DNA from: Trichaptum fuscoviolaceum
Taxonomy: Eukaryota; Basidiomycota; Agaricomycetes; Hymenochaetales; Trichaptaceae
Length of the DNA: 64,000 nucleotides
Direction of reading: 5' to 3'
NCBI GenBank assembly: GCA_910574455.1
Contig: CAJSYZ010000003.1
Span: forward strand, 5,083,250 to 5,147,249
Shown here: one piece after another, positions 4,101 through 63,852 of the stretch
Numbering within the stretch: position 1 is the stretch's first letter
Layout: every line of letters begins with the position of its first letter
Notes under the pieces: model-generated
Told to the model about the DNA's origin: nothing
The model's database searches: none
The model's input: only the letters and a program-made list of their open reading frames with translations
Position numbers and translations under genes: made by a program

Positions 4101-5110
4101 CACGGCAAACATAGGTGGCTGTCTGAAGTGAAGACAGGACGTGTGAAACTGTGTCCCTTCTTTAGAATGCTGTTATTGCGCGTGACAGGTATTAGAGCCA
4201 GATTAGGTGTTTAATAGTTAAAAAGGTAACCCGTGAGAAAGAAAGTCAGTCTGGCTTTGTTTAAGGGAAACAGCTGTCTGAAACAGCCACTTGAGCCAGC
4301 CTTGCTGTGCTGCAGCGATACAGCTTTGTCACACAGTTTATCTGTCTACTTTGATGTCAGAAAGGCTGTCTTAATGGGCTGTCACAGCGTGTAACAGCCA
4401 AGCTGTCTCATTTTAAGTCAGACATACGTAATAGCATAACTGTCTTCTTTGACTGACTTGCAGTCGGACACCTGTGTTAGTCACTTCAGCTGACTTTATT
4501 AGAAACAGCAAGGCTACCTTTACTGCCTGTCTTTCTTACAGATAGTCTGTCCAGACAGCCCAGCTGTTTTACTTTCAGACAGCAGTAGCCTGCTTATTGT
4601 TCCGCTCAGTACTCCACTCGATAGCCCACTCTTAACAATTGAAACAGCTGGGCTGTCTGGACAGACTATCTTTAAGAAAGACAGGCAGTAAAGGTAGCCT
4701 TGCTGTTTCTAATAAAGTCAGCTGAAGTGACTAACACAGGTGTCCGACTGCAAGTCAGTCAAAGAAGACAGTTATGCTATTACGTATGTCTGACTTAAAA
4801 TGAGACAGCTTGGCTGTTACACGCTGTGACAGCCCATTAAGACAGCCTTTCTGACATCAAAGTAGACAGATAAACTGTGTGACAAAGCTGTATTGCTGCA
4901 GCACAGCAAGGCTGGCTCAAGTGGCTGTTTCAGACAGCTGTTTCCCTTAAACAAAGCCAGACTGACTTTCTTTCTCACGGGTTACCTTTTTAACTATTAA
5001 ACACCTAATCTGGCTCTAATACCTGTCACGCGCAATAACAGCATTCTAAAGAAGGGACACAGTTTCACACGTCCTGTCTTCACTTCAGACAGCCACCTAT
5101 GTTTGCCGTG
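4101..5110. repeat. Near-perfect palindrome: two 469-bp arms around a 72-bp loop
   Basis: Bases 4101-4569 are the reverse complement of 4642-5110 with no length change; each paired position sums to 9211. Only a few substitutions were seen by eye, for example G/T near 4318/4893 and C/A near 4545/4666. The spacer is 4570-4641. Neither arm encodes a recognisable protein. Transcription in either direction would give a hairpin of several hundred base pairs. The arm ends do not coincide with the ends of the enclosing element, so it is an internal structure or a nested foldback element. Confidence 0.9.
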
Positions 5111-5252
5111 CGTGCTAGTGCCGATTGGTGTCGAGCAAACTTCCAAAAGTAGAAGTGCTGTAAGGCACATATTAGGCACACACACAGCCTCCTATTGAAT
5201 TCGGATGACAATGCTTTTTCGATCTGGTGCCTGCCCTTCCATATCCGGGTGT

Positions 5253-5645
5253 TCATCCGAGCTCTGGCGCTTCGACCCCATCTACTTTCTCACCATCTCC
5301 ATATCTCTCCCACTTCACCTCGAAACACCCATAAACTGCAACATATCTACCGGACGTCATCCCTGAGCAAGGCCGGACAAGATTGAAGCCATTGATAGTG
5401 CAATATGTAAGGCCAAATGGGACGGACACATCACGGAGGATCTCCGCAGTACTAGTAGCATCAAAATGAGATATCAGATCAGCAAGTGTGAGGTTGGATG
5501 GAATGTTGTCTGGCACACCGAGGACGGTGTAGAAGACTTGGATAGCTTTCTAGGCCTGCCTCCCATTTTTCAACCCACTTTTCCATTTTGCCTCTACTAG
5601 CCGCATTTCCGACGTTGACAGTTGCAATCATTTCTTCCCAGTCAA
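5253..5645 (-). pseudogene. Unidentified coding-like fragment inside the element
   Basis: On the minus strand, 5645 to about 5550 reads as a plausible peptide (FDWEEMIATVNVGN...). After a likely intron or break, 5516-5253 reads as an uninterrupted 87-codon frame beginning MPDNIPSNLTLADLISHFD. Composition and frame continuity look like former protein-coding DNA. Together with its position beside TFIIB pieces in a transposon, this suggests another captured exon. I do not recognise the family. Confidence 0.3.
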
Positions 5646-5984
5646 AGCTCAGTGCGAAATCAGCGTGAATGCTGTCGACTCAAAGAAACTCAAGTGCTCG
5701 GAGTAAGGTACACCGCTTAGTAGTGGAATCTCGCGCGGGCTGTTGGTGTGTAGGTAAGTAAAGGGAAGACGGGATTGCTGTCTGGCGATGATTTGTGGGG
5801 CGGAGGAGGAGAGGTCTATGCCTGTTGATGCGACAGCGCAAGACCTTTTCATCGGTCCATATAATCCTGGAAGCGGTCGGAGGCGACCATGCTGAGAGGG
5901 ACTACGTCCACGCTCGTCCACGCGCTCGAACCGAAGCCTCATGCAGGCCTTTTGCGACATCTCGAGCTGCTGTTTTGGTTCTCG

Positions 5985-47399: not shown

Positions 47400-49610
47400 G
47401 GTGACGCTCCAGATTGAAAAGCATATCATTGCCGAAGTTGAATGCGACGACCAAGTTGAAGAAGCACCTTCGCGCCATACGCTCGTCACCGACCCGGCGA
47501 GGCCTGCAGAGGTTCGGCGCGCTGCTCAAGATTTAGCAGGGTGTCATTAAAGGCTACCTTGCGTTGTTTATGGAACGAGGGCGCTTGTCCGGTCTGCTTG
47601 ACACTGCGCCACTCGAGGTCAAGGCCATCGTCATGGGCGCAAACGGGACAGCCACGTACGCTTCGCGAGGCAACTTCCTGCCGTACTTTGTAACGACTGA
47701 AGCACTTCCTCGTCTTGTCTGGTGAGGGTGAGGAGACGAAGCTGAGAGGCATTACTTTGGATGTGGTGGGCGCATTCACTGAGGCTGTAGGAATTGAGGT
47801 ATTCCGCAGGCACGATAACTCAGACGATCGATGGCATCAAGACGGGCAACGCACGCTTGCGGGAGTGCAGCTTCCTCTTCTTCAGCGTAGCCAGGGTTTC
47901 TGGAAAAGAGTCTGCTCCCCATAGATAGATGGTGTTGTCATTGCTGGAGAGGATCATGCGATGAACTCTTGGTCTCCGGTGAGTCCTCACCCACCCTTGC
48001 TTAATCTCCTGCAGCAGCTGAGGAAATCACCTAGTTCTTCTCCACCGGCGACTCCTCAATCTCAATATCAAGGTCAACAACACGAACGCGACGATCAAGG
48101 TCTACAAGGACAGAATGTCAATCAGTGACAACAAGCTCTTCCCCATCTCAGTCATTTGCGAAGAGAAGAAACCGCCGTAGACACCATTGGATCCGTCTTC
48201 TCCGCGTTTGGCCGGCAGTTCCTGCCGTACGTCGAGCCATCCGCGATCGAGCTCATTTCCCTCTCCAGGGCACCCGGGAGTGCGCGATGGAACACATCCT
48301 CGAGATCAAGACCTTCGATAATCTCAAGGAACCGCAGGACTGGAGGCCCGGCCTTGCCATTGCAGTGCCGTCACATCAAAAGGTCAAGAATCTCATTGCA
48401 CGCGCGCTAGTGCCTTTGCTTGACGCGTATTAGACTGAGGATGTTAAGTAAGTGGTGCTTTCCGGCGCATTTTACATGATGAGCTCCTTTAACTCAGCTC
48501 ACTTCGATGCTCATGAGACTACACATGGATTCTGTTCTGACCTTGATTATATTACTATGATTCTATACTGAAACTGACTTCCTCCCCAGGTCTGTCATCT
48601 CTGCGCTCTGTGCTGGCCTGGCTGATCCTCTTCAATCGTCGGTCCTGCATCCCTTGAAGGCCGTAAGTGCATCACACTGTATTCCTTGACTTTCACTAAT
48701 AACTGTTATAGAATTCAGAGATCTGCAACATCGCCATCCAGATCCGTACCGGGACGAGGATAACGAGCTGCTGAGGACCAGACAGAGTATGACTCTGTGC
48801 TGATCTCTTCCGCTCTTGTTCACTGCCATGCTTGGCGCCGACTTTGCGCAAGCCTTCCAGACCTTCTTCCCATGCACTCTAAATTCTGTGTACGTCAGGC
48901 TATGGTTATCTGGGTTGCACGTGCTGATAACTTGCTTGTCTGTAGGGGAAGAAACTCTCGCTCAGCAGCCGTTTCGTCGATTCTTGATGCACTCGCAGAG
49001 TTAATCAGAGGGACGATGGAAGCAATTTCGCCTACGACACAGCCTCTACTCAAGCTCTTCTCCCAGGCCCTTTCTGACGACGTTCTGAAAGTCCACAGTA
49101 AGACAGCCTTTGCTGTCGGCATCGTCGTCGACCACAGCACCGTCGACCTCTTGCCCCAATACCTAGCTCGCAGCTATCCGTCTGCTCGTCGAGGTCCCGT
49201 CTGACGCACCCACTTCACTGACACCGCGAACTTGAAGCTGAACACTCGCGAAAACACCGCGGGTGTCGTCTTGCACATGATCCTCAAGGAGGGCGTGGCA
49301 ATCCCACTGGTCCAGGTCTTGCCCGTGCTCGTCGGCATCCTGCTGCCGAAGAATGACTTCCCCAAGAACAGTCCTGTGTTGCGCGCGCTGTTCCACCTCC
49401 TCCGTAGCGCGTCGGGCGTCCTCGCTCCGTATCTCGTCTAGTTCCTCCTGGTCTTCTCGCACATTCTTGATTCGTTTGGTCCTGACTAGCTTGGTGACAA
49501 GGTTAGGGGAGAGCTGATTCAGCTCGTGCGGGCGCTGCATGCGGAGAACCTTGCAAAGATCCACGCAGCTGGTCTTACAACAATTAATAGATAAGTGCCT
49601 TATATTAATT
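47400..49610 (+). pseudogene. Importin-4 / Kap123 fragment B
   Basis: On the plus strand the order of a Kap123 C-terminal half is preserved but broken by frameshifts and stops: GVIKGYLALFMERGRLSGLL (about 47545), ASRGNFLPYF, LSGEGEETKLRGITLDVVGA (about 47715), VDTIGSVFSAFGRQFLPYVE (about 48180), LKEPQDWRPGLAIAVPSHQK, VPLLDAY then TAG, GADFAQAFQTFFP (about 48835), ISPTTQPLLKLFSQALSDD (about 49025), NTAGVVLHMILKEGVAIPL (about 49255) and NDFPKNSPVLRALFHLLRSA. Former introns are still recognisable (for example 48450-48590), so the copy is not a retropseudogene. Its 3' end runs directly into duplicated ARB1 leader sequence on the opposite strand. Confidence 0.85.
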
Positions 49611-49965: not shown

Positions 49966-50369
49966 CTGCTTATGGCAACTGACGCGTCCTGATTTGGCTG
50001 GCACCTTTCTGAAGGGTCGCGACTTTGTCTGAAAATACACTGATTGCCTTAACTCACTGAAATAACGAGTGTTTCAGAATGCAAGACGACTCTCAGTACA
50101 TCAGAATGCAAGTCAGGATTTCAGTGCTCAAGCTTACGGCGGCTGGCTTGTCCTGGCGCGTCCTGAAGCTTCCTTAAATGGGTCGAAGTATTGCCATGCC
50201 TGCCTGAAGCGTTGCCTGGCTGCCTGGTGGCCTTAGAACACGGTGTTTCAGGACAAAATCAGTGCATAAGGAGGTAAATTGTACATTAGGCTGCTTGCTA
50301 TCGACCGTGGTCAAAGGCATCACATTGTTTACTTATCACAAGTACCGCAAATCGGTGGACTCTTTCAGG
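49966..50369. other. Spacer between ARB1-like and EDE1-like fragments
   Basis: GTTTCAG-type words (for example GTGTTTCAGGACAAAATCAG near 50240) and CCTGGCTGCCTGG-like short repeats are visible at 50070-50250. No coding content recognised. Confidence 0.35.
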
Positions 50370-51784
50370 AAGTACTAATGACAATGAGGTCGGCGAGGCG
50401 GCTCCGTTCGTTGAGCTAGCAGGAGGCTCCTTCGCCAGTTCCTCCTCAGCTGCCTCCCTTTCCTTTGCCGCTTCTTCCGCTTCGCGCTGAGCGACCTCTA
50501 GTTCTTTTAGGGCTTTGGCCCGTTCAGCCTCTCTCGTAGCGAGCCGCTTCTTTGCAATCGCCAGTAATCCCTTCTGGTGTTTCGTCTCTTTTTTCGCCTT
50601 CTCGATAGCAGCTTTCGCTTGTTGAATTTTATCTCCTGTCTCTTTCATTTTCCTCTGCAGTTCTCTGACGTCTTCTTTATCTCTCATAATACTGCTCTCA
50701 ACCTCGGCTTTCTCAACCCTGATACCGCTAAGATTGCTTTCGGCGTGAATGAGCTCCTCCCTTGCCTTTTGCATTTCTGCAGTTTGCTTAGCATATCTTT
50801 CCCCGGAGGGCATCCAAGAGACGAGTCTCTGTCTCAAAAGCAGCCTTCGCCGATGACAGCTGCGTCTGAAGGGCTGAAAGTTGACTTGCTTGAGCTGCAA
50901 GGGTCTGTTCCATATTCTGACGTTCTGCCTTCGTATGGTCAAGGGATTTGTCGGTTGAGTTCAATTGATTCTGGAGATTGCCAATCTCAACAGAGTTGTC
51001 GGGAACTGCGGCTGCAGCGGAGTCCTCTTCATCGCTGAACAGGTCACGTTGGCTACAAAGTTATTGATATGGGAAAATTAAACGATACTGACGATTTGTG
51101 ATAATAGTTACTTACCCGACGAAGCAAAAGCTGAAGCGCCAAACGGATCTGCAGCTGGTGCCGAAGGCGGCGATCTCGTACTGAAGGCACCTGTGTTTTG
51201 TTGCGGAATAAACCCAGTACCTTGGTGTTGCATGACACTGGACAGGTGTCGATTGATTGGCAGGCTGGGAAGCAAACTGAGGTATAGTATGCTGAGGCGT
51301 TGTGGCGGAAGCTCGAGGAGAATCATCCCAAAGCAGGTCTCTAATTGGTTCCGGTACAGGAGCCAGTGCGGACGATGCAGGATGTGCAAACGCAGATGCA
51401 CCCTGTAAGGTTGCGCGCATGGAAGGCGGTACCAGACTCGGAGGAAGAGACGCAGGAATTTCCTTCCCAGCAAGTTTGCCTTGAATTAGGTGCATTGCGA
51501 TTGCAAAACCTTCTCGGGTGAGGTGTCCATCATTGTTAAAATCGGCTAAGCCCTGCGGTAATATCAGCTATGAATGAGTATCCATCTACCAAACAGTATA
51601 CTCACCAAACTTGCGCAAGCACATCGCCATATACTTTTGATTGCAGCATGAAAGGCACAGCAACTTCGCCCTCAATGAATCCTCTTTTCGGGATGTCGAG
51701 GGTGTCAAATAACTTATCGAATCGAGCTTTTTCTTCTTGTGTCTCATCCCAAGGTGCTTGTGCTGGGCTTGCATTGTTGCCAAA
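50370..51784 (-). pseudogene. EDE1-like (EH-domain endocytic scaffold) fragment, downstream half
   Basis: The minus strand from 51784 reads NNASPAQAPWDETQEEKARF, then an EH domain ([54 protein letters not shown]), a Pro/Ser/Gln linker, and after an intron a long coiled coil (EIGNLQNQLN..., LQRKMKETGDKIQQAKAAIE, LEVAQREAEEAAKEREAAEE). This is the layout of Ede1/Eps15, early-arriving proteins in clathrin endocytosis. A one-base frameshift lies near 50806, between LLDALRG and RYAKQTAEM, and homology stops near 50370 without the UBA domain. The upstream half continues at 56814 beyond a 5-kb insertion. Confidence 0.8.
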
Positions 51785-51803
51785 CGCGGATCAGGAACCT
51801 CAG

Positions 51804-52055
51804 CTGTTTGGATTAATCCGGGGCCGTCAGCGACGCCACCTTGGATTAATCCATTTGTGGATTAATCCGATAACAATTAGTATTATATTTGAATCTATTT
51901 TACATTTCTTCTATCTACTATATGGATTAATCCCTTACCTCAGATTAATCCCTTACCTTGGATTAATCCACACCGGGGATTAATCCCTTACCTTGGATTA
52001 ATCCACATCGGGGACTAATCCCTTACCTAATTTTAATCCACACTAAGATTAATAC
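51804..52055 (+). repeat. Subterminal GGATTAATCC/CCTTACCT array
   Basis: The ten-base palindrome GGATTAATCC or a one-base variant occurs about ten times in 250 bp, alternating with CCTTACCT and CACACCGGGG-type spacers in the second half. Fewer copies lie at the right end (56733-56790). The array probably represents binding sites used in mobilisation. Confidence 0.75.
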
Positions 52056-52074
52056 ATACATTACTGATGAAATC

Positions 52075-52705
52075 ATAGCAAAATGTACCTTGACTGCACC
52101 ATATGGTCGGAGTACATGCCATGCCCGAGGATGAGCAGAGACTGCAAGATGGCGAGCATCGTGTTTGCAAGCACGTGCAGTGTCTTGTCGGACTTGAGCA
52201 CGGTCTTGCAAAATGCGGCCTTCGAGAGCTGATGGCTATCCTGAGAGGGACGGTGTATTGCGAAGTGTATGCCTGCAAGAAACATCAACAACATTAGACA
52301 TGAAGCAGGCAAAGAAGCGTAATTGTACATAAATGACATACCTTGGTTGAGATAACACCAATTTCCGGGCCCACATTGATGTGCACACTGCCAAGCGTCT
52401 CACGCGAAGCTGCAACGCGCCGCGCTTGAGGCAGCAGCGAAGCAGATAGATCTCTCCGCTCCGGGCAAGGAACACACAGATGTCGTCCCGGAAAATTGGG
52501 AATGGTCCATGAAGTCGGACGCAAGCTTGAAACTGATAGGGATCTCCATGAGCTCCTCGAATATCGCGCGCGTCGCGAAGCGGGAGTGGAGAGACATACC
52601 ACAAGTAACGGACATGATTCGTCTACCGCGCCAGACGATCGCAAGATACCTACCAACATCAAAGTTGACGCGCCCACGCATGGTGTTCACGACGGACTTG
52701 AGAGA
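52075..52705 (-). pseudogene. GFA1 (glutamine:fructose-6-phosphate amidotransferase) fragment
   Basis: The minus strand gives SVVNTMRGRVNFDVGR, RRIMSVTCGMSLHSRFATR, AIFEELMEIPISFKLASDFM, then after a frameshift SRETLGSVHINVGPEIGV, and further on VLKSDKTLHVLANTMLA followed by SLLILGHGMYSD. These follow, in order, the first sugar-isomerase (SIS) domain of fungal GFA1. The glutaminase domain and the second SIS domain are absent. Key positions are altered (CGTS to CGMS at the sugar-phosphate site). It cannot encode an active enzyme. Confidence 0.8.
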
Positions 52706-52759
52706 TGTTGTCGTCGTTGTCGTTGTCGTTGTCGATGTTGTCATCGAAGACACCGACAT

Positions 52760-53519
52760 GGTGGTCGGAAGGAAAGAGGGAGAGGCGGTACATTAAGGAA
52801 AACGCATTCCTTTGTTGGCGTCAAGTCCGTGAGAATAAATGGATTAATCTCACCAAACCAAATCACATGTTTTCAGGGTCTTGTTATGTCACGCGTTTAC
52901 TAGTAGTACATAGTACTAGATCATGTCACATTGGGACGTCACCAAACTAATTAAATCCGAACAGTGTCAAGACTTCGCCCCGCTCTCTTCGAAAGAGGTT
53001 CGCGCTTCGATAGATTTGCCCACCTCAGACACGAAGCACATTTGAGCAGCGCCATATGGGCTACCTTCAAACCGACCGACGCTGATAGGACATTCTTTCG
53101 TTCAGCAAGAAAGATCGATAAGGTACACCTAGCATACATCCGTCTCGAGACCGGGTGCGCTATGTCAATCAATGGGATAGTAAGTATTCTTGCGCAAATC
53201 AACACCATTGGAGATCTTTATTCATCCGATGAGAAGGCTTCCGAAGGACAACCCCATATGTCAGTGTTATTACCAGCTACCGGGCCAAGTCCTAGTACTT
53301 GATAAGGCTTGGGATGCTAATAGCGATCGGGTAACCTGACATGGTATGTATGTGCCATCCTTTTCTCTTGCTCAGGTTTCTCCTTGCTCACATCGCATTA
53401 CTTCCAAGGAGCTTCACAACGATAAGCTTGTCAGCTATAACAGCTCTCCAACCACTCCTACTTTCGTTAATACTTCACCCATCGCTTTGCAAAGATTCAG
53501 GCTTTACTCCTCAAACAAA
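52760..53519. other. Interior of the 5-kb element without assigned gene
   Basis: A plus-strand frame of 112 codons (52964-53302) is open but unrecognised. It may be an upstream exon of the PB1-type fragment or chance. Confidence 0.3.
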
Positions 53520-54105
53520 CTCAGAAAGCTCAGATACTACCGGGACTAGTCCGGGACGAGAACAATCTCGCCGTGGGCTTGTCAACCCGGATAACTTCCC
53601 TAAACCTTTCCAAAATCGCCCTGCTGGTCAATTCCATCTCCCATGGTCGCCATCCGCGTCGCAGACCTCTCATCCTACCTCTCCGAGCAATCACAACTCC
53701 ATGATCTCTATGGATGCCTCCATCGCGCCGTCAATGATGAGCTCCATTCTTGACGAAGCGCATGCCATCTCAATCAAGGCCGCGTTTGGGGATCATATCG
53801 TCGTCTTCCGGCGCGCTGATCGGGGCATCACTCTCGAGGAAGTGCGCACTAAAATCTATCATAAGCTGGTCAATCAGCAGAACCTTAAGCTTTCCGAGAA
53901 CTTCATTCTCATGTATAAAACCAACGCCACTCCTTCAACGTCAAGACCCGGCACGGGCGCTGGGCGAGCGCGGTCGAGCTCGATGTCATCAGTTGGTACG
54001 TCTTCTGAGGCACTCGCTTTGTGTCTTGTGTATTCACAAAACGATTGGCAGAATGTTGTCAATGCCTCTGGGGCAAAGATTACTCTCCACATTATCAACG
54101 CTTAA
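53520..54105 (+). pseudogene. C-terminal PB1/ubiquitin-fold-type fragment
   Basis: The plus-strand frame carries a Ser/Pro-rich linker (FPKPFQNRPAGQFHLPWSP), then AISIKAAFGDHIVVFRRADR, GITLEEVRTKIYHKLVNQQN, a Ser-rich insert and LCLVYSQNDWQNVVNASGAK, ending TLHIINA at TAA 54103-54105. Basic strand 1, the regulated helix and the late acidic/DW strand followed by KITLHI suggest a C-terminal PB1-type domain, as in polarity or NADPH-oxidase regulators; the subfamily is not clear. The frame is intact here, but no start or upstream exons can be identified and it lies among decayed fragments, so it is called a captured 3' exon. Confidence 0.45.
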
Positions 54106-54498
54106 TTGTACATAACATTATTGTTCCTTCATTGATTTCTCTTGCGGATATCCATATCTTCGGAACATATATATCTTCGAACTTCATTATTCTTCATCTT
54201 TTCCCTTTGCCGTCCTCTTATACCTTCCTGTATCGCATGGAGCAACATCTATTCTGATTTTCTCTCGGATTCTACAGTATGTTTGTACTACCTGTAACTC
54301 TTCGCCGCCATCCTCTGTCCTTCACTGTTTCTTATACCGCTCTTACATTACACACTCTCACCATGCTGTTGTTTTACGTCCTGTGAGGCTTTCTATGTAG
54401 CTGGGAATAGATGGATTTCCATGTCTTCGATCTAAACCGGTTATTAGAAACCTTCGCAATTAAATTATTAGAATATACAATAGGCGGAACTGCATCAA

Positions 54499-56470
54499 TC
54501 AGTAAGGAAAATGAGAGGACCTCAGGCTCCCACTGCAAGTTTCAACCTGCATAACGAGCGGCCTCGGAGCTCTGGGCGCCGGCGGTGCACCTTGTGGCAA
54601 AGGTGCCCTCGTCCAGTCTGGAAGGTGAAATATTCGCAGCGGAGGTTGTCCAGTCTGCTGCTCATTATCGCCATCAGCTGCTTCATCAGCAACCTCTGCT
54701 TCATCCCACTTTTCCCGAGTGATCTTGATTCCACCAATTTTCATTGCCCTGGATAGGAGAAAGTTTTCGTCAGCACAGCGTGTAGATTAAGAACTTCACG
54801 AAGTAGGACTAGAGCATCTTACCCTGCCAAAGAGCCTCCAACCCAAGGTAAAGCTACCGGAGTAAACGCGGGTGCCTTCCCCCCGGCGCTGTTGCCATAG
54901 GTGGTGAAGGGTTGTTGAGTATTGCTATATAGAAGGTGCAAGAGGCCGTAGCGGAGTATACGGGTCATATGTGAGAGGTGCTGGTCGGTCCCGCCGAAGA
55001 GATTGACGATGTGAAATAGTAGGTCGAGTTAATAAGCGGACGAGTTCAGTATGAAGCCGAGGTATGAATCCAGGTAACATCGGCGTGCCTCCAACGACTA
55101 AGATATGGACTTGCGGAGATCTATCGGTACCTAGGTAATAGCGAAGCAGAGAAGCAGACGAATGTGGGGTAAACAAGCAAAGGATCCGAGTATTAAGAGA
55201 TTTGACGTGACACCCATACAGATTGAGTTAATGGCAAGTTAGCCTTTCAGTTTATATCTCGGGCGTACCTTGAGTAGGGCATCTAAGAGCACATCAGCAA
55301 CACAGCTTTCGTCAACATCTCCTCCCTCAAATAGGTCTTCCGCCGCCCTTTCCCTGACCCAACCCGGAATAACGAGGGTGCCTTTGCTCGTTCCTGATCC
55401 AACTTGCATGGTGGGGGAATCAACACGAATATGCAATTCTGTTGCGGTAGAATGTCGGCTGTATATCGTCGCCATGGCTTGGAGTTGATGCTCTCCCGTA
55501 CTTCGGTCTATACCCGAGAAATTTGAGCTGAGCGCGTGCGTTAGAGAGGAGAACCCCGATGGAGATGTAACAGACGAAAGACGATTTGACGGTGGAGAAA
55601 CGGGGAGATAAACGGAACCACGATTCATATCCTGGTCCTGGTCTGCTAGGCTTCAATCACCAGGTGGGACATCTGTTTCTGTTGCGCCATCATCAACATA
55701 AACCATAGATGAATTTAGGTCAGCGTCGAAAGCCTCTCCAACAAAGCAACACCGAGCCTTTATGTCTTCCATAACAGCATCTGTGAGTATGTCTTCAGGT
55801 ACACGCATCGAGCGACTTGCAGCAGGGATGTTGGCTGCACCTCCTAGTGTACCAAGGGGCGGTAGATATGTGGCAAACATAAGAAGCAAAGCACGTAGAT
55901 GTGAAGTCAGGCGTAAACCTGCTAATGGAGTTGATCGAATTAACGGGAAGAGTGGTCGTGAGGAGAATATCTAAAGACTTTATGAATAGAATCGTGTTGG
56001 TAGTATGATGTTCCTTAGACTTACTGGTAAGACCGTCGGTTTGAGGTGTCCGCAATCAAGAACGAGTCCAGTGATTCTGCCCACACCAAGATGCGACAGC
56101 AGATGACTGCTGGCGAGAGAGAGTGATGGAATCTACATAACATTTCTTAGTTATTTTCAAAGCATAAATGGCAGATAGTCAAACATGACACTCGCCATCA
56201 TATCCTTAACATGCAGCGGCAGAAGAGGATCCCGTTCTGAGTGGACATGTGTCCATGACAATGACCAGAGTGAGGTGCTTGGCTCTTTCTCGACATAAAG
56301 CACATCTCGGGGTCGGCCCTCTCCACTGAAGCCAACCTTCCAGATGTTCGAGCCTGAATCGATGATAATTCTGTCCTCAGTCCCGTACAGAGAATGCCGC
56401 CTGGTCGTAACATAATAGGAGAGCTCTGCGCAGCTATGCCAGCACTAGCTGGCGTTGAAGGGTGCATCGC
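54499..56470 (-). pseudogene. ARP10-like (dynactin actin-related protein) decayed copy
   Basis: The minus strand carries, in order: PSTPASAGIAAQSSPIM; after a frameshift LYGTEDRIIIDSGSNIWKVG then FSGEGRPRDVLYVEKEPS; LGVGRITGLVLDCGHLKPTV; LLMFATYLPPLGTLGGAANI; GTLVIPGWVRERAAEDLFEG then GDVDESCVADVLLDALLK; ILVVGGTPMLPGFIPRLHTE; and AMKIGGIKITREKWDEAE near the end at 54700. This is the layout of Arp10/Arp11, the pointed-end cap of the dynactin Arp1 filament. Frameshifts occur near 56395 and near 55110 (between VPIDLR and HILVVGG), and an in-frame TGA near 55650. Former introns remain, so it derives from genomic DNA. Confidence 0.8.
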
Positions 56471-56813
56471 TACTCTTGATTACGGTGTTTCGGGCTTGAT
56501 AGTCATTTTGTTGTCTTTGTCCGCAGTTTATAGAGAGAATCTGTAAGATTTGTGGTAGTTTACCATCCAAGTTACCAGTGGAGTGCCAGTGGCCACTGGA
56601 GCTTCAAGTTCAAGTTCAAGTTCAAGTTGAGCGTGTGAGAAACGCGTCGCGACGGGTCATCCGACTCATTATTAGACCACCATCCCCCCATCCCCAGCCC
56701 TCGAGCCGATACTCTTCCAGCTCTCCATATGTTAATCCGTTGCGTGGATTAATCCGGGGTGGCATCGCTGACTGCCCCGGATTAATCCAAACAGCTGAGG
56801 TGATCGCGCGGAT

Positions 56814-57112
56814 GCACCGAGAGCAGCAAGAGGGTTTGGTGTGAACTGCGAAGGGAAAATAGCACTCTGTCTGTAGTTTTGGCCCGTCATCTGGGGCTGA
56901 AATCTTGGGCGCGAACCTCCCGTATTCTGAGAAGTCAGAGGGGTAGCCGTAATTCCGCTTGCACCACTGATGTGGCCGGACATAGAGGCTTGAATGAGGT
57001 ACATGGCAATCGTGAAGTCGGTTTGGTCAAGCGATCCTCTGTCCTGAGTATCTGCAAGTGTCCTGAAACAACGTCAATTGAAGTGGAAATATCACGCCCA
57101 GCCAGGATACAT
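56814..57112 (-). pseudogene. EDE1-like fragment, upstream part
   Basis: The minus strand from about 57070 reads TQDRGSLDQTDFTIAMYLIQ, then ASMSGHISGASGITATPLTS, and on to FTPNPLAALGASA. This is the end of the second EH domain and the linker of Ede1. It begins at an exon edge (TTTCAG just upstream). The first EH domain and the protein start are missing; homology ends close to 57112, where GGTACTAA repeats begin. Confidence 0.8.
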
Positions 57113-57124
57113 CAATAACCCCAG

Positions 57125-61189: not shown

Positions 61190-63852
61190 TTGCTGCTGCT
61201 GTTTCCCGCTCAAGGTCGCTTCACTCCCACCAGCACAAGTCTTCCCCGCTCTCAGCAGCCTCATCACGCATGGCACGTCAGGCGCAGACCCGAATGCGCG
61301 TCACAATGGAATGCCACCGGCGACGCTCATGAAGACGCACCATCGTGTTCTGCGCTGCGCATCATCGACACCCTCTCAACGTCGCTCCCGCCCGCTCAAG
61401 TCTTCCCAGCACTCAGCAACCTCCTCAAGCAGGGCATATCGAGCGCAGACCGGAATGTGCATCGCGGCGCGATGAAGGCAATCGGTGTTGCCGTCGAGGC
61501 CGCTGATGCCGCAGGTCTGGCGGCTCTGGCCACTGATCGAGGCTGGTCTTCAGGACCACGATGCCGGCGTGCGTCGCGCGACCTGCATGGCTGTCGGCTG
61601 CCTTTGCGAGTGGGTCGAGGATGAGTGCATCAGCAAGCACGCCGCGCTTGTCCCCGCCATCATGGCTCTCGTCGCTGACCCAGCGACCCAGCGCCATGCC
61701 TGCCCAGCGCTCGGCGCTCTGCTTGAAATCCTGCAGGACGTCATCGAAGGTTACCTTGCGCTGCTCATGGAGCGCCTCTCTGACCTGCTCGACACCGCAC
61801 TGCTCAAGGTCAGGCCGTTGTCACGGGTTCGGTCCGCCGCGCACGCGTCGCGAGGCGACTTCCTTCCGTACTTCGCGCCGACCATGGACAAGCTCAAGCA
61901 CTTCCATGTTCTGTCTGGCGAGGGCGAGGAGACCATGTTGAGGGGCATTGCTATGGATGCGGTGGGCACATTCGCGGAGGCGGTTGAGAAAGGAGGCATT
62001 CCGCCCGTACTTCGCAGAGACGATCACGCAGGCCTTCGACGGCATCAAGACGACTGCAAGAGTGCAGCTTCCTCTTCTTCGGCGTGATGGCCAAGGTGGT
62101 TGGAGACGAGTTGCCCCCTACATCAGTCAGGTAGTGCCAGCGTTGCTAGAGAGCATCAAGCAGGACGAATCCTTGGGCTCCGGTGAGTAATCCTTAAAAC
62201 CCACCTTCACCCTTGCTCAATCTCTTGCAGTAGATAAGGAACTCACTGGGTTCTTCACCACCGGCGACTCCGCAACCTCTGCTATCAAGATCAAGGACGA
62301 GAACACGAATGCGACGATCGAAGTTGACGACGACACGGAATCTATCAGCGATGACAAGCTCTTCGAGGTCAACTCAGCCATTGCCGTGGAGAAGCAAATC
62401 GCCGCAGACACCATCGGCACCGTCTTCGCCGCGACGGGCCAACATTTCCTGCCGTACGTTGAGCCGTCCATGCTCGAGCTCATAAACCTCCTCTCCCACT
62501 ACTACGAGGGCATCCGGAAGAGTGCGACAGAAAGCGCTTCGAGATCATCAAGACCTTCTACAAGCTGAGCGAGCCGCAGGACTGGCAGCCCGGCTTAGCG
62601 ATCGCTGCGCCGCTCCATCAAAATGTCAAAGACCTCATTGCGCACGCACTGGTGCCACTGCTGGACATGTATGAGACCGAGGATGACAAGTGAGTTATAG
62701 TTTCCTGTGCACTTTACATGATCTTGATCATATTCTTATGTTTACACAACCGATACTGACTTCTTTCTTTCAGGTCTGTCGTCTCTGCCCTCTGTGTCGG
62801 ATTAGCCGAGACTCTTCAAACCGTCGGTCCTGCATTCCTTGAAGGCCGTAAGTGCTTTGATACTCCTCCAGCTTAGTTTCCTCTAATTCCTGTCACAGAC
62901 CTCGAAGAGATCTGCAACATCGCTATCCAGATTCTAGAACAAAAGCTGCTTTGCCAGCAAGATACGGACCAGGACGAAGGTGACGAGCTGCTGGAGGACC
63001 AAGCAGAGCACGACTCCGTGCTGATGTCTTGCGCCGGTGATCTCGTGGCGGCCCTCGCCGCTGTCCTCGGCGCCGACTTTGCGCAGGCCTTCCAAACCTT
63101 CTTCCCTCTGATCTCTAAGTTCTACGTAAGTCGTTTTCTTGCTTTCGATATTTCATTGGCTAACAATTTGTCTGCAGGGGAAGAAACACTCGCTCAGCGA
63201 TCGGTGGTCGTCTATTGGCGCACTCGCTGAGATAATCAATGGGATGAAGAGCGCAATCTCGCCTTCAACGCAGCCTCTCCTCGAGCTCTTTTACCAGGCC
63301 CTTTCTGACGACGAGCCCGAGGTGCACAGCAACGCCGCCTTTGCCGTCGGCGTCCTCGTCGAACACAGCACAGTCGATCTCTCCCCTCAATGCCTGCACC
63401 TGCTCGCCGCTCTCCGCCCGCTCTTCGAGGTCCCGTCCGACGCGCCCATCGCGAAGCTGAACGCGCGTGACAACGCTGCAGGCGCCGTCTCGCGCATGAT
63501 CCTTAAGAATAGCGAGGAGATCCCGCTGGACCAGGTCCTGCCTGTGATCGATGGGATCCTGCCGCTGAAGAACGACTTCCTTGAGACCAGGTCCGTGTTT
63601 TGCGCGATCTTCCGTCTGTTCCGCAGCGCGCCAGGCGTCATCGCGCCGTATGTCGACCAGCTGCTCCCGGTCTTCGCGCACGTCCTTGACCCCACGGGTC
63701 CCGACCAGCTTGGAGATGAGATTAGGGCAGAGCTGATCCAGCTTGTGCGAGCACTGAATGCAGAGAATCCTGCGAAGATCCAGGCTGCTGGTCTTACTGC
63801 AATTTGTAGAAATGTTTCCTTTATTGCTTTCCATTTTTGTGTAATGCTGTGA
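61190..63852 (+). pseudogene. Importin-4 / Kap123 fragment C (longest relic)
   Basis: The plus strand follows the C-terminal two-thirds of Kap123: LPPAQVFPALSNLLKQG, WPLIEAGLQDHDAGVRRAT, KHAALVPAIMALVADPATQR, HASRGDFLPYFAPTMDKLKH, AADTIGTVFAATGQHFLPYV, LINLLSHYYEGIRKSA, FEIIKTFYKLSEPQDWQPG, MYETEDDK, then intron, then DLVAALAAVLGADFAQAFQT, SDRWSSIGALAEIINGMKSA, LSDDEPEVHSNAAFAVGVLV and NDFLETRSVFCAIFRLFRSA, ending near 63852. Frameshifts occur near 61505, 61990, 62050, 62115 and 62525. The exon LPPAQVFPALS... is present twice in tandem (about 61218 and 61385). Introns remain. The 3' third (62770-63850) is open and best preserved, so loss was recent. No N-terminal importin-beta domain. Confidence 0.85.

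What the first reader, a model, noticed from the sequence alone, without database searches (positions are those of the whole stretch)
51785..56813. Pack-TYPE-like transposon: 5-kb TIR element with GFA1, PB1 and ARP10 cargo, inserted in an EDE1 fragment
Seen: inverted ends of about 45 bp, flanking heptamer CGCGGAT, and an EDE1 frame that becomes continuous when the insert and one heptamer are removed. Cargo from three unrelated host genes lies in two orientations, with introns retained. Known: Pack-MULEs and other Pack-TYPE elements capture genomic gene pieces in plants. I know of few well-described fungal cases with several captured genes, so this would be a clean example. No transposase is encoded, so mobilisation would be in trans.
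Basis: partly seen in the sequence, partly recalled or inferred. Interest (0 to 1): 0.88.

Follow-up and report, generated by a model that had tools for sequence, protein, structure and literature searches.

The report
Gene-capturing KDZ transposon in Trichaptum
A five-kilobase jumping element in a wood-rotting mushroom carries a copied piece of two neighbouring host genes plus older copied scraps, has a sister copy with the same cargo elsewhere in the genome, and shares its ends with an element that encodes the enzyme of a little-studied transposon group (KDZ).

Summary
Window 51792-56806 is a 5,015-bp non-autonomous DNA transposon with 57-nt inverted ends (53/57) and an exact 7-bp duplication, CGCGGAT. 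An intact EDE1 paralogue on C1 shows the empty site. A genome-wide end scan gave 17 hits (control 0). Of seven paired copies, six have exact 7-bp TSDs and one 6/7 bases. One (C12, 23.4 kb) encodes a KDZ transposase, so this is a Pack-TYPE-like element of the KDZ superfamily, not a Pack-MULE. A sister copy on C10 (98.4%) carries the same cargo at another site. Correction: PB1 and ARP10 are not independent captures but one contiguous ~3.5-kb block (resident locus C8:1570859-1574337), joined at 5 bp of microhomology to an older element already holding a GFA1 fragment (seen in 7 of 8 non-autonomous copies) and a TE-derived segment. Unexpected: cargo and resident locus differ mainly at synonymous sites (dS 0.257, dN 0.037), which argues against simple capture from that locus followed by neutral decay; the donor was probably a divergent functional copy, perhaps from another lineage or species. 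Host: Trichaptum fuscoviolaceum TF100210M3, inferred from assembly statistics. Mobilisation by the KDZ transposase is inferred, not shown.

The parts
51785..51791 (.). left target-site duplication CGCGGAT
   Evidence: 7/7 identical to 56807-56813
51792..56806 (+). whole non-autonomous element, 5,015 bp, CAGGA...GATCG
   Evidence: ends set by comparison of 7 paired copies and their TSDs
51797..51853 (+). left inverted-repeat arm (57 nt)
   Evidence: 53/57 with the right arm
51810..52060 (+). left subterminal region with 7 of the element's 9 copies of the palindrome GGATTAATCC (possible transposase sites, inferred)
   Evidence: element positions 19, 52, 68, 133, 169, 186, 204
52123..52696 (-). 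GFA1 fragment (52123-52208 and 52224-52696), older capture shared by the family
   Evidence: blastn to the resident GFA1 gene C10:1439158-1441334, 82.6% and 69.7%; also in the C10, C7a, C8, C2, C9 and C5 copies
52967..53503 (+). segment X, part of another interspersed repeat (33 loci outside this family among the 40 scored of 108 candidates), longer in sister elements, cut here at 53503
53499..53503 (+). 5-bp microhomology AGGCT at the junction X / captured block
   Evidence: comparison with X in L027, C2 and C5 and with the resident locus
53499..56727 (+). captured host block, one colinear piece matching C8:1570859-1574284 (to 1574337 in the C10 copy), 88.4% over aligned bases
53335..54105 (+). 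256-aa open frame running from X into the PB1 tail (199 PB1-gene codons compared, no new stop)
   Evidence: no evidence of expression
54492..56470 (-). ARP10-like gene copy, defective: one new stop, 162-bp deletion at 56230, 12-bp deletion at an apparent splice site
56731..56732 (.). junction of a ~1.1-kb deletion relative to the sister copy on C10 (right subterminal region absent here)
56745..56801 (-). right inverted-repeat arm (57 nt)
56807..56813 (.). right target-site duplication CGCGGAT
50358..51791 (-). host sequence: EDE1 fragment, downstream part
   Evidence: 95.4% to C1:3400331-3401753; EH domain PF12763 E 4.8e-6
56807..57112 (-). host sequence: EDE1 fragment, upstream part, with a 135-136-bp internal deletion at 56971-56973; ends where another repeat begins at 57113
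   Evidence: EH domain E 4.6e-5

Best explanation
This is a non-autonomous, host-gene-carrying (Pack-TYPE-like) transposon of the KDZ superfamily in a Trichaptum fuscoviolaceum genome. Inferred history: (1) a form with these ends and no transposase gene, holding a GFA1 fragment and a TE-derived segment X, spread. (2) In one lineage a break inside such an element was filled with ~3.5 kb of host-type DNA, the tail of a PX-PB1 gene and its convergent neighbour ARP10; the X-side joint shows 5 bp of microhomology. (3) The composite moved at least once: C3 and C10 carry it between different 7-bp TSDs. Insertion on C3 hit an EDE1 fragment. Movement in trans by the KDZ transposase of an element like the one on C12 is inferred from shared ends; no activity was shown.
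For: Shown: ends shared genome-wide, 17 pattern hits, reversed-pattern control 0. TSDs: 6 of 7 paired copies 7/7, one 6/7. Empty site in the C1 paralogue. Same cargo at two sites: C3 vs C10 98.4% over 4,989 aligned bp, 99.5% within the block. KDZ transposase inside the C12 copy, which has the same ends and TSD CCTTGAT: CxC2 E 2.9e-27, KDZ PF18758 132.7 bits, KDZ E 5.3e-30 for one open frame; 2 homologues found among 3,484 candidates, the better 42% identical. One-block capture. Microhomology. GFA1 in 7 of 8 non-autonomous copies examined and not found in C12 or C7b.
Against: No transposition, excision or expression was observed. C12 is the only locus found with the near-complete transposase gene at DNA level, it carries a nested retroelement, and its gene was only read as separate open frames, so its activity is unproven. 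The right-hand joint of the captured block is hidden by an 807-bp MITE-like insert in C10 and by the deletion in C3. The first 5 bp of the two ends do not match. The C9 copy has an indel in one arm and C2 an imperfect TSD. Three loci (C7b, C5, C4) showed only one end. The X-side joint could be compared with only 3 X copies; the script did not locate it in C8 and C7a.
Confidence: 0.92

Rival explanations
1. The cargo was copied directly from the resident C8 locus of this lineage and has decayed neutrally since.
For: The C8 locus is the only match in this genome outside the two elements, colinear and in the same orientation. The ARP10 copy is visibly broken. The test against it assumes equal mutation rates in element and resident locus. 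The 3' intergenic stretch differs by only 0.138, less than dS.
Against: Pooled over 3 coding stretches: 83.5 synonymous changes in 383.4 sites, 41.5 nonsynonymous in 1,164.6 (dS 0.257, dN 0.037). An equal-clock neutral-copy model expects at least ~138 nonsynonymous changes, P ~1e-21; PB1 tail alone 14.5 against 42.8, P ~9e-7. The same test on the EDE1 fragment against its C1 gene is roughly compatible with the simple model: 23 seen, 28.3 / 31.1 / 33.9 expected for a gene-branch ratio of 0 / 0.1 / 0.2, P 0.18 / 0.08 / 0.03, though its three stretches are uneven (ratios 0.35, 0.23, 2.5).
Confidence: 0.08
2. The donor was a functional paralogue in the same species that has since been lost, not another lineage.
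For: Explains the low dN/dS without transfer.
Against: No second copy of the block is found in this genome outside the two elements and C8; it needs an additional duplication and loss of a two-gene block.
Confidence: 0.2
3. Not a transposon insertion but a mosaic made by segmental duplication and rearrangement in a repeat-rich region.
For: The neighbourhood is repeat-rich and holds other duplicated gene pieces.
Against: Precise empty site, 7-bp TSDs at the paired copies, same ends at 10 loci, sister copy with the same cargo.
Confidence: 0.01
4. A Pack-MULE, hAT or Helitron element rather than KDZ.
For: Host-gene capture is better known for these groups (recalled; abstracts of PMC8903248 and PMC4289320 seen in listings; hAT passages).
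Against: 7-bp TSD, long TIRs, and a KDZ transposase in the 23-kb relative with the same ends. A 7-bp-TSD hAT group is described in rusts, so TSD length alone would not exclude hAT.
Confidence: 0.03

Closest known systems
Pack-TYPE transposons of plants (Pack-MULE and others; PMC8903248, abstract seen in listing)
   Same: Non-autonomous DNA transposon carrying host coding DNA; here also TIR, TSD, no transposase in the element.
   Different: Fungus instead of plant; KDZ superfamily; a ~3.5-kb block spanning two convergent genes on top of an older capture.
Kyakuja / KDZ transposons of Agaricomycetes (Kojima 2025, PMC12730594; sections 3.1.1, 3.2.1, 4.1 and passages read)
   Same: KDZ transposase in the C12 relative; 7-bp TSD as reported for Kyakuja; 5' terminus CA.
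   Different: Kyakuja is reported without TIRs and with CA..TG termini; here there are 57-nt TIRs and CA..CG termini. The captured gene described there is a TET/JBP gene; here several host fragments sit in a non-autonomous element.
KDZ1-KDZ3 of Cryptococcus neoformans (PMC12810828, passages read)
   Same: KDZ transposase with a cysteine cluster, long TIRs, shown to insert; TSD 8 bp (KDZ1) or 4-8 bp (KDZ2/3).
   Different: Transposase-bearing, CxC1-type; no captured host genes in the passages seen.
Transduplication of histone H3 by hAT and of another ORF by Tc1/Mariner in fungi (PMC3538342, PMC6710886, passages read)
   Same: Fungal TIR transposons that captured and multiplied host genes.
   Different: hAT and Tc1/Mariner; in P. 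fijiensis the H3 copy lacks introns and was put down to a transcript; here genomic DNA of two genes in a KDZ-type element.
Pack-TIRs of animals and the gap-filling / FoSTeST models (PMC8277862, passages read)
   Same: Breakpoints inside the element, microhomology at a joint, multicopy form away from the source locus.
   Different: Mostly hAT and TcMariner in animals; median captured size 224 bp there against ~3.5 kb here.
Helitron gene capture in Pleurotus (PMC4289320, abstract seen in listing)
   Same: Mushroom-forming fungus, captured genes.
   Different: Helitrons are rolling-circle elements; this one has TIRs and a TSD.

Membership tests
Pack-TYPE (non-autonomous gene-capturing DNA transposon) | terminal inverted repeats | tested here: met
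   57 nt, 53/57
Pack-TYPE (non-autonomous gene-capturing DNA transposon) | target-site duplication and empty site | tested here: met
   CGCGGAT 7/7; C1 paralogue empty site
Pack-TYPE (non-autonomous gene-capturing DNA transposon) | no transposase in the element | tested here: met
   no PF18758 hit inside; 7 of the element's open frames scanned against Pfam, no transposase; frames listed
Pack-TYPE (non-autonomous gene-capturing DNA transposon) | host gene sequence with a homologous intact locus elsewhere | tested here: met
   C8:1570859-1574337 and GFA1 at C10:1439158-1441334
Pack-TYPE (non-autonomous gene-capturing DNA transposon) | moved after capture | tested here: met
   same cargo on C3 and C10 between different TSDs
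KDZ superfamily | KDZ transposase in an element with the same ends | tested here: met
   C12 copy
KDZ superfamily | this element itself is mobilised by that transposase | not testable with these tools
   needs a transposition assay
Kyakuja (KDZ subgroup) | 7-bp TSD | tested here: met
   6 of 7 paired copies exact, one 6/7; criterion from PMC12730594
Kyakuja (KDZ subgroup) | CA..TG termini without TIRs | tested here: not met
   termini CA..CG and a 57-nt TIR; criterion from two families in PMC12730594
Kyakuja (KDZ subgroup) | transposase groups with Kyakuja in a tree | not tested
   no labelled reference set on hand
Mutator / Pack-MULE | 8-11-bp TSD and MULE transposase (recalled) | tested here: not met
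   7-bp TSD; KDZ transposase in the relative
Helitron | no TIR, no TSD (recalled) | tested here: not met
   TIR and TSD present

The most novel reading that the evidence does not exclude
A KDZ transposon picked up a two-gene block in a divergent lineage (another Trichaptum species, a deeply diverged population or an unsampled lineage) and carried it into this genome, so that KDZ elements move blocks of host genes not only within but between fungal genomes. The evidence: cargo and resident locus differ by dS 0.257 but dN only 0.037; after allowing for neutral decay in the element, a donor-resident divergence of about 0.18-0.23 per synonymous site remains, which accrued under purifying selection.
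Probability: 0.4. Interest if true: 0.78.

Novelty: new variant of a known kind. Interest (0 to 1): 0.62.

Why it matters
Pack-TYPE gene shuffling is best described in plants. Here a transposase superfamily known in fungi for carrying TET/JBP genes (PMC12730594) is seen with a well-documented case: a transposase-bearing relative, non-autonomous derivatives, stepwise capture in a readable order, a mobilised sister copy and an empty site, all in one assembled genome. If the donor was another lineage, such elements would be vehicles for host genes between fungi, which could be tested directly with the 180 Trichaptum strains described in PMC8970355.

Tried and rejected
Pack-MULE and Helitron readings were rejected by TSD, TIR and the transposase in the C12 relative. 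A tRNA-like stretch in the right subterminal part of C10 (seen by eye) gave no ARAGORN gene in the 8 loci given (of 46 held). I suspected a precise intron loss in ARP10 (a processed capture), but the 162-bp gap removes apparent exon-intron-exon sequence, so it looks like an ordinary deletion. I suspected that the EDE1 fragment was itself cargo of an outer element: its right edge is the exact start of another repeat family (57113), but no second end was found in the window, so an insertion into a duplicated EDE1 fragment is as likely. Decay signatures: CpA/TpG to TpA changes 22 of 449 against 16 of 432 in the reverse direction, no clear RIP signal; CpG loss 31 of 210 in the element against 14 of 166 in the resident locus, a mild excess in the element. 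Copy counts are lower bounds by the tool's own statement.

The GFA1 dN/dS values rest on 71-97 codons in broken alignments and range from 0.23 to 0.70 over 7 copies; the low ones (C7a 0.23, C8 0.25, C3 and C10 0.32) do not clearly separate an old resident source from a divergent one. The dN/dS counts use a Nei-Gojobori script of my own; ARP10 stretches were taken as open frames, so a few boundary codons may be intronic. Codons with gaps or stops were dropped: 4 gapped codons in ARP10 exon 1 and one new stop in its middle exon; 46 + 1 + 1 gapped codons in EDE1.
Full report
Where it is. The window is G000:C3:5083250-5147249 of a genome of 59,093,390 bases in 12 contigs. Peris et al. (PMC8970355, passages read) list T. 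fuscoviolaceum TF100210M3 with 12 scaffolds, N50 5,547.79 kb and 59.09 Mb; contig C1 here is 5,547,787 bases. I infer that this is that assembly. By the paper's naming it is a monokaryon, so the copies should not be alleles of two nuclei.

The element. It spans 51792-56806 (5,015 bp) and is flanked by CGCGGAT on both sides. The two ends read CAGGA and, from the other side, CGATC, then share a 57-nt inverted repeat (53/57). The palindrome GGATTAATCC occurs 9 times, 7 of them near the left end and 2 near the right; these could be transposase sites, which is inference. The EDE1 paralogue on C1 has one copy of the 7-mer, with one SNP, where the window has the element between two copies. EDE1 here is only a fragment: it matches C1 from 50358 to 57112, has an internal deletion of 135-136 bp and borders repeats on both sides.

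The family. A scan of the whole genome for 23 bases of the end with up to 3 mismatches found 17 sites and none for the reversed pattern. With the similarity searches these give seven paired copies (C3, C10, C7a, C8, C2, C9, C12), three loci with one recognised end (C7b, C5, C4) and one further end with 2 mismatches on C1 that I did not read. TSDs are 7/7 in six of the seven paired copies and 6/7 in C2; an eighth base does not extend them. C12 is 23.4 kb, of which 6.3 kb is a nested LTR retroelement (Gypsy-like by eye) with a 5-bp TSD, and it holds the KDZ transposase: CxC2 (E 2.9e-27) and KDZ (132.7 bits; E 5.3e-30 for one open frame). C7b carries a 1.2-kb piece of the same gene. C9 also contains a nested LTR retroelement.

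The cargo. Two DNA searches with the inner sequence hit one resident locus, C8:1570859-1574284, in colinear order; the C10 copy extends the match to 1574337. The block holds the last 199 codons of a gene whose more distant homologues are in part named PX domain-containing proteins, with a weak PB1 match at its end, and a convergent actin-like gene (ARP10). The C8 locus has a long open frame for the first gene (700 aa up to the edge of the fetched DNA) and long frames for the second. So PB1 and ARP10 came together. The element copy of ARP10 has one new stop, a 162-bp deletion and a 12-bp deletion at an apparent splice site, all shared with C10. None of the other eight loci tested (C2, C5, C7a, C8, C9, C4, C12, C7b, as far as fetched) matches the block.

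Order of events. A GFA1 fragment is found in 7 of the 8 non-autonomous copies examined (not in C4, of which only part was read) and not in C12 or C7b. Segment X, part of another interspersed repeat, follows it. X has 33 scored loci outside this family (40 of 108 candidates were scored). In C2, C5, C8, C7a and C9 similarity to X runs past the point where it stops in C3 and C10, and C4 holds the later part. In C3 and C10 X stops at 53503 and the host block begins at 53499; the five shared bases AGGCT occur both in the uncut X copies compared (L027, C2, C5) and in the C8 locus. That fits repair of a break inside an older element by copying from elsewhere, as in the gap-filling models for animal Pack-TIRs (PMC8277862, passages). 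C10 keeps the family's right subterminal region and has an 807-bp MITE-like insert; C3 lacks ~1.1 kb there.

The donor. If the block had been copied from the C8 locus and had decayed since, about half of the divergence would be free of selection. Instead, three coding stretches give 83.5 synonymous changes over 383.4 sites and 41.5 nonsynonymous over 1,164.6. The simple model expects at least ~138 nonsynonymous changes. In the PB1 tail, by inspection, most amino-acid differences lie at positions where the resident protein agrees with its closest homologue and often with more distant ones, which places them on the element's branch. As a control, the EDE1 fragment against its C1 gene shows 23 nonsynonymous changes against 28.3, 31.1 or 33.9 expected (P 0.18, 0.08, 0.03 for a gene-branch ratio of 0, 0.1, 0.2), compatible to marginal, with uneven stretches. 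The test assumes equal mutation rates in element and resident locus. Non-coding divergence is mixed: 0.138 in the 3' intergenic part, 0.187 in one intron-like stretch, 0.396 in a poorly aligned upstream part. Taken together, the cargo seems to come from a copy that had already diverged from the resident locus by about 0.18-0.23 per synonymous site while under selection; equally, the resident locus could be the newcomer. No such copy is found in this genome. The paper gives 15.7% average divergence between T. abietinum and T. fuscoviolaceum and 5.4% within T. abietinum; the cargo differs from the resident block by 11.6%. These figures are not directly comparable, and I had no T. abietinum DNA, so the donor may be another species, a deep lineage or a lost paralogue.

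Against known kinds. Pack-TYPE features are met. The KDZ superfamily is supported by the relative's transposase. Kyakuja is suggested by the 7-bp TSD (PMC12730594), but its reported lack of TIRs and CA..TG ends are not met, so I do not file it there. Fungal transduplication by hAT and Tc1/Mariner elements is in print, KDZ elements with a captured TET/JBP gene are too, and an F-box association of fish Zisupton is mentioned in PMC12062965 (passages). I found no paper on non-autonomous KDZ elements carrying host gene pieces in searches, nor a description of this family in Trichaptum in one search (listings; only some papers opened; the library lacks most subscription journals).

Limits. GFA1 is backed by matches to the glmS family model at its resident locus (each exon scored apart and below the whole-protein cut-off), EDE1 by EH domains, PB1 and ARP10 only by weak Pfam hits and, for the PB1 gene, homologues named for a PX domain.

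Noticed in passing
window 57113 onward: Another repeat family begins exactly where the EDE1 fragment stops, with CAATAACCCC and an array of GGTACTAAAT; related starts are on C10, C6, C8 and others. No second end was found in the window.
   Followed up: partly
window about 47660-49580 and 61840-63800: Two diverged, same-orientation copies of one coding region (HEAT/importin-like by eye; Pfam gives only HEAT_EZ at E 0.042 for one frame) lie on either side of the EDE1 fragment.
   Followed up: no
L027-L033 and KDZ copies C2, C5, C8, C7a, C9, C4: Segment X is shared between this KDZ family and interspersed repeats of at least two other kinds with different left ends, as if modules pass between transposon families.
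   Followed up: partly
G000, whole genome: 115 matches to the KDZ transposase domain PF18758 (several matches can belong to one gene), many in near-identical groups: KDZ elements are numerous in this genome.
   Followed up: no
L016-L017 (C12:412274-414740): The 23-kb KDZ-bearing copy also has overlapping open frames of 621 and 227 aa, beside the transposase and on the other strand; only a weak KOW motif (E 0.00056) was found in the second.
   Followed up: partly
C12:420638-426961 and C9:474667-481372: Nested LTR retroelements (Gypsy-like by eye) with 5-bp TSDs; LTRs 100% and 99.76% identical, so recent insertions into KDZ copies.
   Followed up: partly
C10 copy, element positions 5041-5847: An 807-bp MITE-like insert with 30-bp perfect inverted ends sits near the right edge of the captured block.
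   Followed up: partly
L020 (C5 copy): A 396-aa open frame resembling a Tc1/mariner-type transposase (by eye, not searched) sits in the sequence next to the C5 copy's recognised end.
   Followed up: no
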